64,000 bases of DNA. Origin: Sistotremastrum niveocremeum HHB9708 (Eukaryota; Basidiomycota; Agaricomycetes; Sistotremastrales; Sistotremastraceae). The position numbers were made by a program, and so were the translations under genes. This document shows, one piece after another, positions 45,511 to 49,758 of the stretch. The DNA is taken from assembly GCA_001630475.1 (NCBI GenBank), contig KV419401.1, positions 310,001-374,000 on the forward strand, written 5' to 3'. The notes beneath the pieces were generated by a model that saw only the letters and a list, made by a program, of their open reading frames with translations, searched no databases and was not told where the DNA came from. Position 1 is the first letter of the stretch. Every line of letters starts with the position of its first letter.

Positions 45511-46270
45511 ATGGCCCAATCACCTGTGGCGATCTCCAACAAGGACAAAATTGAGATCCTGTTTCAAATGCTAGCAGAGCGTGGTCAGGGTGATTATATC
45601 GGGGAGAAAATAAGTCAGCTCGTAGGTTTACATAATCTCAAAAATCTCTGTTGAAACAACGATCCCATCAGGAGCATTCCCTTCAAGCTGCTTATTTTAC
45701 AAAAGAGACCGGAGCAGATGACGAAACCGTGATAGCAGCATTACTCCATGACGTCGGACAATTCATCCCGTTCTCTGAATCCAAGGATCTCATACTAAAC
45801 GGAGAAAATGTAGGCCGTCGAAGCCATGAAACATTGGGCGAACAGTATCTGAGGCAGATCGGATTCACTGAGAAGGTTTGCCGGCTAGTGGGGGCTCATG
45901 TTGTCGCCAAGAAGTAGGCCGCCTGAGGTTCTACGTTCCGACACGGAGCAATTTCTGATAATGTTACAGATATCTGACTGCGGTGGACCCTTCATATCAT
46001 GCTGGGCTTAGTGATGCTAGCAAGAAGAGCCTTATCTTGCAGGTCAGCTTCACTTCAAAGAGGTTTATACGATAGGATTAATTGGATCATGCGATTTTCT
46101 CCTAGGGCGGCCCGTTCACTGCAGATGAGGTAAAAGAGTTTGAGAAAGATCCATACTGGAAGGAGAAAGTACAACTTCGAAAATGGGATGACGCAGCCAA
46201 GCTCGAGGATTTCAAAGCCCCTGGTCTTGATAACTACGCTGACATGGCAGCAAGGTCTTTGGTCAATTGA
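45511..46270 (+). CDS. phnZ-like: PhnZ-like HD-domain oxygenase (C-P bond cleavage)
   Basis: Four exons with clean borders (45511-45621, 45672-45913, 45970-46042, 46106-46270) give 196 residues, the size of bacterial PhnZ. The start is ATG 45511 (MAQSPVAISNKDKIEILF). Residues matching the mixed-valent di-iron site are in place: lid Tyr and Glu in GDYIGEKISQLEHSL, His in LEHSLQ, His-Asp in LLHDVGQ, His in RSHETLG, His in GAHVVA, and Asp in RKWDDAAK. This set, especially the YxxE lid and the KWDDAAK segment, marks the oxygenase branch (PhnZ, myo-inositol oxygenase) and not hydrolytic HD proteins. PhnZ turns 2-amino-1-hydroxyethylphosphonate plus O2 into glycine and phosphate. It is convergent with a PhnY-like gene whose product would be its substrate. 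Substrate assignment is inference; trimethylated 2-AEP or another 1-hydroxyphosphonate is possible. Confidence 0.85.
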
Positions 46271-46386
46271 CTGCATCCGTATATTTCGGCATCATCCATT
46301 GTTATACGTTGGGACTACATGAGAATGTGTTGTAGGGATATTTTGAATTGAAATGTATTATATCTTCCCGTCTCTTGCTCTTTAGG

Positions 46387-47361
46387 CTATGCCTTTTCCT
46401 GGATAGTCAGCATGGGCGAACCAAATCCATATAAGACAGCTCCTTCCTCGTACTTCTCTCCTACCAATCTCTCGTGAGTAGGAGGCCACAATTTTCGCCT
46501 GTGGACGTAATATTCATCGTGACTGTCTCCACCATCCGAATCGCAATTATATCTGTTGCAGTATGAGGTATGAGATAAAGTTATCTGAGAAGAGTGCCGA
46601 TCAAGACCCACGTTGCATAAATAGCCGCTCGTCCCAGAGAGGAGTGATTTGCCCCTGAACGATGGGCCAAATAACTACCAAAAATCAACAACTCCCCTAG
46701 AGATTATCGATCATCGATTGGAATGCAAGGCCCATCCAAATATCCAAAAGAACTACACACCTGTATCAAGAGGCACCGGGATCCAATCGTGCATCTCGCA
46801 CCATTCTTTGGTGATACACCGGTCCTCCCCCAACGGAATAGGCTCTTTGTGACTTCCAGGGACAACCTCGAGACATCCATTCTCCAAAGTAGCTGGTTCA
46901 ACGGCCATGAGAATCGTCAGGTGTTTTGTTGCCTTGATATGATTGTATGCTGGTGCGTCAAAATGTGCGTCGAATCCTCCAGCATGTGGTTGTTTGTAGT
47001 TTATCTTCTCCTTAAATAAATGCATCTTCTCTCCCGAGAGTTGCTGGAGGACAGATAAAGCATTTTCACCGCGAAGAATGCTGTTGAATCCAGGATGGTA
47101 GTTGCAATAATTCTGATTATCTGGATGAGTGTTCGTTAGACCAGATGCTTTCGACGCTACCTCGGTTCGGCAAAGGACCCTCTTTCCAGTGGCGTCAATC
47201 TCTTCGTACGGCATATGTTCTCCAACGACATTTGGAAGATTTTTGACTTCACTAGTCCATCTAATGAGACTGTCGACTTCTTCCTTTGTCAGGAGGTCTG
47301 TGAGTTTGAGAAATCCATTTTCTTGGAACGACGTCTTCTCGGATTCTGTTAAGGATCTCAT
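46387..47361 (-). CDS. phnY-like: PhnY-like Fe(II)/2-oxoglutarate dioxygenase (PhyH family)
   Basis: Exons 46761-47361, 46612-46696 and 46387-46552 give 283 residues. The start at 47361 reads MRSLTESEKTSFQENGFLKL, the usual opening of phytanoyl-CoA-dioxygenase-like enzymes. The iron ligands are His and Asp in FDAHFDAPAYNH, then a distal His in FGSYLAHRSGANHS, whose Arg would bind 2-oxoglutarate. The end contains GDSHDEYYVHRRKLWPP, EKYEEGAVLYGFGSPML, conserved in PhnY-type members. PhnY hydroxylates carbon 1 of 2-aminoethylphosphonate. The gene faces the PhnZ-like gene (117 bases between stops) and diverges from an MFS permease (300 bases between starts), which is why phosphonate is favoured over other PhyH substrates. 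No presequence, so probably cytosolic. Confidence 0.82.
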
Positions 47362-47661
47362 AGATGGCAGCAGGGAAAGAACGTGTCGATCATTCAGGCA
47401 CCAAATTAGAAGTGGAAGCTTACTTAATTTAGAAATTTGAAACTCAGCTCGAGAATTGGAAGCAGACGCCAAACACTCACAGGGATGCACGTTCGCTCCT
47501 GCCACACGGTTCACGTCTCGGTCCTGCTCATGTCTGACTGTTTCAAAGAAGGCACTTATGGATACTCTCACAGTTTTTTGTTTTTCCCACAAGATGTGCT
47601 TTAAAATAGTTGAGCACCAGAGCGGCGAGCCTTCAGAGATCTTTCTCCCCCACGCTCCGAC
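47362..47661. promoter_or_regulatory. 300-bp divergent promoter of dioxygenase and permease
   Basis: Exactly 300 bases lie between the two start codons. Shared control is therefore likely. I see no repeated motif that I can name as a phosphate-response site with confidence. Confidence 0.55.
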
Positions 47662-49758
47662 ATGGCTTCACGGATGAAGAGAGACGACATGAAGAAGGAT
47701 GGAGCTGATGCTAAAGACGAAGTCTTCGAAACATCCGCTGGTATCGAGATCTTGGAGAAGAAGACCAAAATCTCTGCAGTCTCAACCGTCATCTTCTCTG
47801 GAATTGCCCTGCTAAGCGACGGCTACAATGCGTCAATCGTTGGGTCAGTTACCCAACTATAGTTCCCTCCAGAAACTCATGATACTTTCTCCAAGAAACA
47901 TGAACATCATCTTTGGAGTTCTGTATCCTGCGGATGTTTTTACCCATGCCATCAAGACAAGATTTTCTAACGGTATGTTTCTTTATGAATTCTACGCTAT
48001 TGTGGATCTTTTTGAATTCAATGATAGCTTTTCTCATCGGCGAAATCGTTGGCCAACTGGGGTTCGGATTCCTCATTGACAAAATCGGCCGCAAAGCAGG
48101 TGTCTTCTTGACAACTGCCCTACTCATCTTTGGCATTATCCTCTCTGCTGCGGCTCATGGAACGACTCTCTTGGGCATGTTCTGGATGTTGATTGTCGCG
48201 CGTGGAATTGCTGGCGTTGGAGCTGGTGAGCAGAACCTACAGGTGTTGAGATTTTCTCCGTGTTGATTCGTCTTGCAATAGGTGGTGAATATCCAGTATG
48301 TGGAGTTTCGGCAACCGAAGCTGCCGATGAAACGGCTGGAGTACGAAAACACCGAGGGTTCCTCATTGGCATGGTGTAAATATTGATACATCTCCATCTG
48401 ATCATGAGTTGACGAGCGTATAGTGGCGATTTTATGATTGACTTTGGTTTCGTTCTGGGTACCACTGTGATTTTCTTGTATAAATCCCTCACCTTTCTCA
48501 CCCCATGATTTTCAGGGGGCATTGTTCCATTGATCGTCATGGCGGCTTTCCACGCCGTCGGACCTGACCAAACCGCTCATTTCAAGGAAGGCATTTGGAG
48601 AACATGCTTCGCTCTTGGGCTTGTCCTTCCATTATTCGTCTTCTATTTCCGCTGGAAGTATGGCTTTGATCTTTCATCCCGTGATTTTATCTCAATATTT
48701 GCACACAAGGATGATCAACAGCACTGCTTTCCGTAAGAACGCGATGAAGAAAAGAATTCCCTACCTCCTGGTCTTAAAGCGGTGGGTATTTTCGTTACAT
48801 GAAGATATCGGCTCTCATAGTTCCTAGGTATTGGCCTCGTCTCATTGGAACAGCAGTTTGTAAGCCTTGCACGATCTAGCTAAATGTTTCTTATTCACAA
48901 CCGTTTATGACTAGGTTGGTTCCTCTACGACTTCGTCTCCTACCCCTTCGGTCTTTTCTCGTCCACTATCATCTCCCAACTGGAAGTAAATTCAACTCCC
49001 GTAAAGGACATCGGTTATGGCACCTTAATCAACGCATTTTATCTTCCGGGCTGCGTTCTCGGAGCCTGGTCAATGGATCGCATCGGCCGCAAGAAGACGC
49101 AATTCCTTGGATTCTTCCTCCAGGCTATCCTTGGATTCATCCTCGGTGGAGCCCTTGGTCCTATCCAGAAAGTCTTCCCATTGTTTGTCGTCCTTTACGG
49201 TATTTTTGTCAGTCTGGGAGAGTTCGGTCCGGGTGTGGCTACTATTTTGATTTCCGGTGAATCGTACCCTACCGCGGTGAGAGGGCATATGTTGGGCCTT
49301 TCCGCCGCTGTTGGCAAGGCTGGCGCTGCTATCGGAACTCAAGGCACGAGACATCCTTCATCGACAAGATAATTACTGAACGTCATCATTAGTATTCTTG
49401 CCGATTCAAGACTCATTCCCGAATACCTTCAAAGGCACCCAAGCCGTTTTCGTCATCGGTTCAGCTTTCTCTCTCGTCGGCGCCATCGTTACCTGGTTCT
49501 TGATCCCCGAGGTAATGATATACTGTCTTCCACATAAATCATACGCTATAGCCAACAATTCATTTGCAGATGAGCCGCGATCTCGAGACAGAAGATGCAG
49601 CGTTTAAGCAATACCTCGAAGAGAACGGTTTCGACACCGCAGATTTGGGCGAACCACTCGTCCTCAGTGCACCCAAAGATCTCTTGCAAGAACTCGAACA
49701 TGTGGCTGTCAACGAGAAAGGAGATGAGAGCAGCGAGAAGGCTGCAGAAGCCATGTAA
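47662..49758 (+). CDS. MFS transporter, organophosphate/phosphate permease type (GIT1/PHO84-like)
   Basis: ATG 47662, TAA 49758, about eight or nine introns, roughly 540-560 residues. The first helix region ILEKKTKISAVSTVIFSGIA, then LLSDGYN, is the pattern of the phosphate:H+ and glycerophosphodiester symporter branch. Other marks: GQLGFGFLIDKIGRKAGV (loop 2-3 MFS signature), ARGIAGVGAGGEYP, a second loop signature SMDRIGRKKTQ, and SGESYPTAVRGHMLGLSAAV in the second half. It ends in a cytosolic acidic tail (LETEDAAFKQYLEENGFD). It lacks a signal peptide, as expected. Being divergent from the PhnY-like gene, it is the natural candidate for phosphonate uptake; glycerophosphoinositol or phosphate are the alternatives. 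Confidence 0.85.

What the first reader, a model, noticed from the sequence alone, without database searches (positions are those of the whole stretch)
45511..49758. A fungal oxidative phosphonate-catabolism cluster: PhnZ-like, PhnY-like and a permease
Seen: three adjacent genes encode an HD-domain oxygenase with the PhnZ-type ligand set and YxxE lid, a PhyH-family 2-oxoglutarate dioxygenase, and an MFS permease of the organophosphate branch. The two enzymes are convergent (117 bp) and dioxygenase and permease share a 300-bp divergent promoter. Known: in bacteria PhnY hydroxylates 2-aminoethylphosphonate and PhnZ cleaves the product to glycine and phosphate. Inference: this basidiomycete carries a self-contained import-hydroxylate-cleave module for phosphonate phosphorus. 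I am not aware of a described fungal cluster of this kind.
Basis: partly seen in the sequence, partly recalled or inferred. Interest (0 to 1): 0.88.

Follow-up and report, generated by a model that had tools for sequence, protein, structure and literature searches.

The report
Fungal phosphonate import-and-cleavage gene trio
A wood-inhabiting fungus carries three neighbouring genes that most likely let it take up natural phosphonates and split their tough carbon-phosphorus bond for phosphorus; the two enzymes were already known in bacteria and, fused together, in another fungus, but their recurring pairing with a permease in fungi appears to be new.

Summary

So the phosphonate reading is well supported, but PhoF (2022) had already shown this chemistry in a fungus. 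What I did not find in print is the permease-linked cluster and its breadth. The permease is of the phosphate:H+ symporter (Pho84/Git1-like) kind. Transport, substrate and regulation are inferred, not shown. New variant of a known kind.

The parts
45511..46270 (+). PhnZ-like HD-domain diiron oxygenase gene, 196 aa; exons 45511-45621, 45672-45913, 45970-46042, 46106-46270
45595..45606 (+). Codons of the YxxE lid motif (Y29-I-G-E32)
   Evidence: Aligned to PhnZ Y24/E27; Y kept in 129 of 129 rows and E in 128 of 129; coordinates counted by me from the start codon at 45511
46271..46386 (.). 116-bp convergent gap between the HD and PhyH stop codons
46387..47361 (-). PhnY-like PhyH-family Fe(II)/2-oxoglutarate dioxygenase gene, 267 aa; exons 47361-47161, 47112-46761, 46696-46612, 46552-46387
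   Evidence: Model; Pfam PhyH 3e-27 and NF052437 methylphosphonate hydroxylase 146 bits, below cut-off, both with the earlier 283-aa model; orthologue P0121 164 bits; H117, D119, H196 in 121 of 121 rows
47362..47661 (.). 300-bp divergent promoter region; CACGTT at 47488 (+) and at 47380-47385 (reverse strand), CACGTC at 47512
   Evidence: weak: 35 of 6370 sliding 300-bp windows hold as many CACGTG/CACGTT
47662..49758 (+). MFS permease gene of the phosphate:H+ symporter (Pho84/Git1-like) kind, 522 aa; exons 47662-47843, 47896-47972, 48028-48225, 48282-48375, 48424-48458, 48516-48657, 48710-48781, 48828-48859, 48915-49343, 49393-49511, 49570-49758
   Evidence: TIGR00887 154 bits, below cut-off; solved phosphate transporter 7sp5 4e-27; S. 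suecicum orthologue 99%

Best explanation
A fungal phosphonate-phosphorus scavenging cluster. A Git1/Pho84-like, probably H+-coupled permease imports an aminophosphonate, most likely 2-aminoethylphosphonate or a close analogue (inferred). The PhyH-family Fe(II)/2-oxoglutarate dioxygenase hydroxylates the carbon next to phosphorus to give the (R)-1-hydroxy compound (inferred from family and from PhoF). The HD-domain mixed-valent diiron oxygenase then uses O2 to cut the C-P bond, giving inorganic phosphate and glycine (inferred from PhnZ and PhoF). It is the split-gene form of the fused fungal enzyme PhoF, with a permease beside it. Shown here: gene structure, family, catalytic residues, predicted fold of the HD protein, phylogeny and recurrent linkage. 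Not shown: activity, substrate, transport, regulation.
Against: No activity or expression data. Both enzymes fall below the NCBIfam cut-offs (188 of 214.6; 146 of 500), though P0193 does too (170, 173). PhnZ H62 is Q67 here (Q in 109, R in 10, H in 10 of 129 rows), so the pocket is not identical. The permease belongs to a family that carries phosphate and glycerophosphodiesters, and nothing here shows phosphonate transport. A fungus grown on 2-aminoethylphosphonate showed transaminase and phosphonatase activity in extracts, not this route (PMC3905195). One of 6 genomes has HD and permease far apart by tag. The promoter signal is weak. 76 of 81 fetched loci with HD homologues (80 from bacterial genomes, 1 viral; flanks of at most 4 or 5 kb, some cut by contig ends) had no PhyH gene detectable with this query.
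Confidence: 0.82

Rival explanations
1. Same chemistry, different main substrate: methylphosphonate, 2-trimethylaminoethylphosphonate, 3-aminopropylphosphonate, or a phosphonate released from lipids or made by fungi.
For: Best PhyH family is methylphosphonate hydroxylase NF052437 (146 bits; the other two families listed are a chlorinating enzyme and ectoine hydroxylase). PhoF accepts two aminophosphonates. Q67 replaces PhnZ H62.
Against: The Glu of the YxxE lid, which contacts the substrate's amino group in PhnZ (PMC8177086), is kept in 128 of 129 rows; TmpB lies in another part of the tree; the NF052437 score is far below its 500-bit cut-off and P0193 scores alike.
Confidence: 0.3
2. The enzymes are a phosphonate pair, but the permease imports phosphate or glycerophosphodiesters and is only a co-located phosphorus-acquisition gene.
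For: Phosphate:H+ symporter is its best family, solved phosphate transporters are its best PDB matches, and it keeps Y150, W320, D324, Y328 and K459 of the PiPT phosphate pocket (roles from PMC6761603). Some relatives are named GIT1, glycerophosphoinositol permease or inorganic phosphate transporter.
Against: Adjacent to PhyH or the fusion in 10 of 10 comparable genomes. The position of PiPT Q177 is I, V, L or C in 120 of 121 rows and D149 is E in 121 of 121, so it is not a canonical Pi symporter.
Confidence: 0.25
3. The HD protein is an ordinary HD phosphohydrolase and its neighbours are coincidental.
For: Generic Pfam HD hit; several database names read 'predicted HD phosphohydrolase'.
Confidence: 0.02

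Closest known systems
PhoF, Fonsecaea multimorphosa (fused PhnY-PhnZ; Langton et al. 2022, known here only through the review PMC10574752)
   Same: Same two domains. P0193, the F. multimorphosa fusion that I take to be PhoF, is about 52% (PhyH) and 46% (HD) identical to the window's proteins and lies in the same fungal groups. Fusions in F. pedrosoi, F. erecta and three Cladophialophora species sit next to the same permease family.
   Different: Two separate, convergent genes here; a basidiomycete; permease divergent from the dioxygenase. The split pair's activity is untested.
PhnY/PhnZ of bacterium HF130_AEPn_1
   Same: HD protein 43-45% identical to PhnZ in the structural alignment; ligands and lid kept.
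   Different: H62 to Q67; intron-bearing eukaryotic gene.
TmpA/TmpB, Leisingera caerulea
   Different: TmpB lies in a separate part of the tree. TmpA was not compared.
GmPhnY/GmPhnZ, Gimesia maris (methylphosphonate)
   Same: NCBIfam models built for this pair are the PhyH protein's best and the HD protein's second-best family.
   Different: Scores far below the cut-offs (146 of 500; 159 of 300).
Fungal Git1 / Pho84 / PiPT transporters
   Same: Same MFS family by best match; six of eight checked PiPT residues kept.
   Different: Q177 and D149 of PiPT replaced; recurrently beside phosphonate enzymes. No Git1 sequence of known function was compared.

Membership tests
PhnZ-type HD mixed-valent diiron oxygenase | H...HD...H...H...D metal ligand set | tested here: met
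   H39, H63, D64, H89, H113, D170; motif from PMC8177086
PhnZ-type HD mixed-valent diiron oxygenase | YxxE lid loop, absent from myo-inositol oxygenase | tested here: met
   Y29, E32; motif from PMC8177086
PhnZ-type HD mixed-valent diiron oxygenase | Fold closest to PhnZ/TmpB rather than to hydrolases | tested here: met
PhnZ-type HD mixed-valent diiron oxygenase | TIGR03276 curated cut-off 214.6 bits | tested here: not met
   188.4 bits. Not read as disqualifying: P0193, the F. multimorphosa fusion, scores 169.7, and L017 in a phosphonate locus 194.6
PhnZ-type HD mixed-valent diiron oxygenase | O2-dependent C-P cleavage of an (R)-1-hydroxyphosphonate at a mixed-valent diiron site | not testable with these tools
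   needs the purified protein
PhnY-type PhyH dioxygenase | HxD...H iron triad and distal Arg | tested here: met
   H117, D119, H196, R207; roles are general knowledge of 2-oxoglutarate dioxygenases (recalled)
PhnY-type PhyH dioxygenase | Genetic partnership with a PhnZ-type gene | tested here: met
   Adjacent in 5 of 5 comparable genomes; fused in 17 of 120 listed homologues
PhnY-type PhyH dioxygenase | Direct similarity to the HF130 PhnY sequence | not tested
   No such sequence was at hand; only PhyH neighbours of bacterial PhnZ relatives were compared
Methylphosphonate hydroxylase (NF052437) | Curated cut-off 500 bits | tested here: not met
   146 bits with the 283-aa model; orthologue P0121 164 bits. 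Not filed as a member
PhoF (fused PhnY-PhnZ) | Both domains in one polypeptide | tested here: not met
   Two genes on opposite strands
Phosphate:H+ symporter (TIGR00887) | Curated cut-off 610.3 bits | tested here: not met
   153.8 bits
Phosphate:H+ symporter (TIGR00887) | Pi-pocket and proton residues of PiPT | tested here: inconclusive
   D45, Y150, W320, D324, Y328, K459 kept; D149 to E, Q177 to I; D48, E108, R139, F174 and N431 not checked
Organophosphate:phosphate antiporter (GlpT-like) | Profile match | tested here: inconclusive
   No such family among the 13 NCBIfam families listed at E 0.001

The most novel reading that the evidence does not exclude
Fungi of both great phyla of Dikarya share an old phosphonate-utilisation module in which a Git1-like MFS permease has become a dedicated aminophosphonate importer (to my knowledge the first in any eukaryote), and the two enzymes have been fused or split several times independently. 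Part of the 2-aminoethylphosphonate use by fungi that has been put down to transaminase plus phosphonatase may run through this 2-oxoglutarate-dependent route.
Probability: 0.5. Interest if true: 0.66.

Novelty: new variant of a known kind. Interest (0 to 1): 0.52.

Why it matters
How fungi take up and break phosphonates is poorly known: the 2023 review calls phosphonates 'even more cryptic in eukaryotes' (PMC10574752, passage), a 2025 review of fungal phosphate metabolism does not contain the word phosphonate (PMC12653687, term search), and uptake has been put down to general amino acid permeases (PMC3905195). A compact three-gene cluster whose parts recur side by side in Ascomycota and Basidiomycota gives one testable genetic handle on both uptake and cleavage in soil and wood fungi, and a marker to score in fungal genomes. 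It also places the fused enzyme PhoF as one form of a wider module.

Tried and rejected
Rejected: HD protein as nucleotide hydrolase; permease as a bacterial-type organophosphate antiporter (no such family among 13 listed); a recent bacterial donor for the HD gene (the fungal-type rows form one group and none of the 80 best bacterial loci of 271 confirmed falls inside it); chance neighbourhood.

Led nowhere or weak: the promoter CACGTT pair is suggestive at best; the fungal NUC-1 consensus is GCACGTG (PMC12506109, passages), which neither site matches fully. A quick tree of 39 permeases (thinned from 120 rows at 78% identity) coloured by linkage showed no clustering (13 changes, 258 of 500 shuffles as low); 'other' there only means that no partner was found in the best-120 lists. 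The viral-contig scan gave one short partial match (L096). PEP-mutase and PhnW family matches are weak and below cut-off. No structure of the PhyH protein was made. Fungal DNA other than the own genome could not be fetched, so strands and intergenic regions in relatives were not compared. Linkage rests on locus-tag numbers and on equal longest-contig lengths read; those lists show the best 120 of 1191, 624 and 1010 hits, the length given for a cluster may belong to any of its members, and sharing a chromosome-size contig is weaker than adjacent tags. The protein search took only candidates up to 1.75 times the query's length, so fusions over about 495 aa were not seen.

Errors of mine, mended: the first HD model was out of frame by one base (corrected). 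The first PhyH model kept a 48-base intron, adding 16 residues; searches used that 283-aa version (corrected to 267 aa), so its scores and identities there are slightly low. One fusion (P0160) has an implausibly short linker and may be a gene-model artefact; without it the fused state would need 4 rather than 5 changes on the tree (my reading of that tree, not recomputed).
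Full report
What is there. The window comes from Sistotremastrum niveocremeum HHB9708: the HD protein modelled here equals the deposited protein letter for letter, and the window is G000:C8:310001-374000. Three intact genes fill 45511-49758: HD (+, 4 exons, 196 aa), PhyH (-, 4 exons, 267 aa) and MFS (+, 11 exons, 522 aa), with a 116-bp convergent gap and a 300-bp divergent gap. Of the flanking ORFs tested, those at 43610-44875, 49987-50559 and 50438-50695 had no Pfam hit, and one at 42650-43195 has TPR repeats; none looks like a phosphorus gene.

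Phylogeny. In a tree of 112 rows the 30 fungal-type rows form one group (100/96). A branch with 91/85 support joins them to PhnZ plus a Bacteroidota/Pseudomonas clade, and TmpB lies among the other 60 rows (root drawn at the midpoint, bootstrap not fully settled, four long rows). The bacterial rows are the 80 best of 271 confirmed loci. One bacterial relative in that sister clade, L017 of Pseudomonas, sits with a phosphonatase (TIGR01422, 320 bits), a 2-aminoethylphosphonate ABC-transporter protein (TIGR03261, 533 bits) and a TIGR03364 FAD oxidoreductase.

The PhyH protein. It is a PhyH-family protein (Pfam 3e-27) whose best NCBIfam match is methylphosphonate hydroxylase, well below cut-off; P0193, the fused protein of F. 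multimorphosa, scores alike. The iron triad H117, D119, H196 is kept in 121 of 121 rows and R207 in 120. Of 81 loci with HD homologues (80 bacterial-genome, 1 viral), 5 had a PhyH gene found with this query and none the permease. The PhyH genes of L031, L040 and L065 are the nearest of the 5 to the fungal group (the tool warned of long branches), and the HD genes of L031 and L040 group with PhnZ.

The permease. Its best family is phosphate:H+ symporter (154 bits of 610) and its best PDB matches are phosphate transporters. Chain 7sp5, which I take to be PiPT because its letters match the published PiPT residues at an offset of two, allows a residue check: D45, Y150, W320, D324, Y328 and K459 are kept, D149 is E and Q177 is I; D149 is E in 121 of 121 rows and Q177 is I, V, L or C in 120 of 121 (roles from PMC6761603, passages). 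This fits a proton-coupled carrier of a phosphate-like anion with an organic tail; that is inference. The own genome has more distant permease relatives elsewhere (47% identity or less, on C16, C7, C17, C23 and C101).

Linkage. Among listed hits with comparable locus tags, HD and PhyH are neighbours in 5 of 5 genomes; PhyH or the fusion and the permease in 10 of 10; HD and the permease are one or two tags apart in 5 of 6, the sixth (Acrodontium) being 3100 tag units apart, which is 31 genes if its tags run in hundreds. Of the 10, Vanrija is a basidiomycete and the others are ascomycetes (phyla recalled). Penicillium canariense and Aspergillus felis have the order HD-PhyH-MFS, as in the window. 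By equal contig length, 40 contigs carry at least two of the three families, 6 all three, and 32 of 119 permease hits share a contig with an enzyme gene; these include Sistotremastrum suecicum (PhyH and permease on a 61,346-base contig) and Mycena haematopus. The best-120 limit leaves pairs out; I made no count of genomes that have one gene but not the others.

Fusion. 17 of the 120 listed PhyH homologues are PhyH-HD fusions (440 aa or more, both Pfam domains). On a tree of 60 rows (the 17 fusions, the window, 37 other split homologues of my choosing and 5 bacterial rows) the fused state needs 5 changes, at least 4 forced by well-supported branches, so the pair has been joined or split more than once; one of the five rests on a doubtful gene model (P0160). 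Repeated fusion together with linkage is strong evidence that the two enzymes act in sequence.

Known and new. The oxidative route and its four described versions, including fungal PhoF with activity on 2-aminoethylphosphonate and 3-aminopropylphosphonate, are in the review PMC10574752 (passages). I did not see the PhoF paper itself. In the held open-access library I found no paper describing a fungal phnY/phnZ gene cluster with a permease (searches). Those searches are limited: one search listed 20 of 57 papers, one search was diffuse and listed 15 of 2277, the single paper was not opened, and most subscription papers are not in the library. Growth of Geomyces pannorum on 2-aminoethylphosphonate is published, with transaminase and phosphonatase activity in extracts and uptake suggested through amino acid permeases (PMC3905195, abstract and part 1 of the results section); this stands against the present route as the only fungal one. 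The same text says that a Penicillium purpurogenum extract worked best with 2-oxoglutarate as acceptor, which this route would also need. Pseudogymnoascus, to which Geomyces pannorum has been moved (recalled), has PhyH homologues of this group (P0173, P0174), so the present route may contribute there; that is untested.

Genome context. In the own genome each enzyme query matches only this locus. Families for phosphonatase and phosphonoacetate hydrolase gave nothing (the phosphonatase model rang in 13 of 14 control genomes, the other in 2 of 14); PEP mutase and PhnW gave weak matches below cut-off. Because genes are searched exon by exon, absence is likely but not proven.

Verdict. Observation confirmed; function very probably right; novelty claim overstated.

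Noticed in passing
window 14622-16633 and 51921-53748: Two ORF groups about 35 kb apart look like paralogues by eye (shared stretches such as RTLANTLVGLL and LFVAFTLSPSL, and a cysteine-rich, MYND-like end); the main ORFs tested had no Pfam hit.
   Followed up: no
window 33333-34067: Part of an RNA-dependent RNA polymerase gene (Pfam RdRP, 1.9e-24); neighbouring ORFs from 31571 on seem to belong to it by eye.
   Followed up: no
window 4503-5192 (minus): Part of a P-type ATPase (Pfam Cation_ATPase 4e-07); by shape of the neighbouring ORFs perhaps a phospholipid flippase.
   Followed up: no
window 49343-49393: The permease gene needs an intron with a GC donor (exon end AAG, then GCACGA) to stay in frame.
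   Followed up: no
L020 2289-4561: In Hymenobacter a PhnZ-family gene (TIGR03276, 229 bits, above cut-off) follows an MFS gene whose best family is the phosphoglycerate/GlpT kind: a possible bacterial parallel with a different permease family.
   Followed up: partly
P0004 (Tremellales sp.): An HD-only protein begins with what looks by eye like the start of a PhyH domain, so its gene model may hide another fusion.
   Followed up: no
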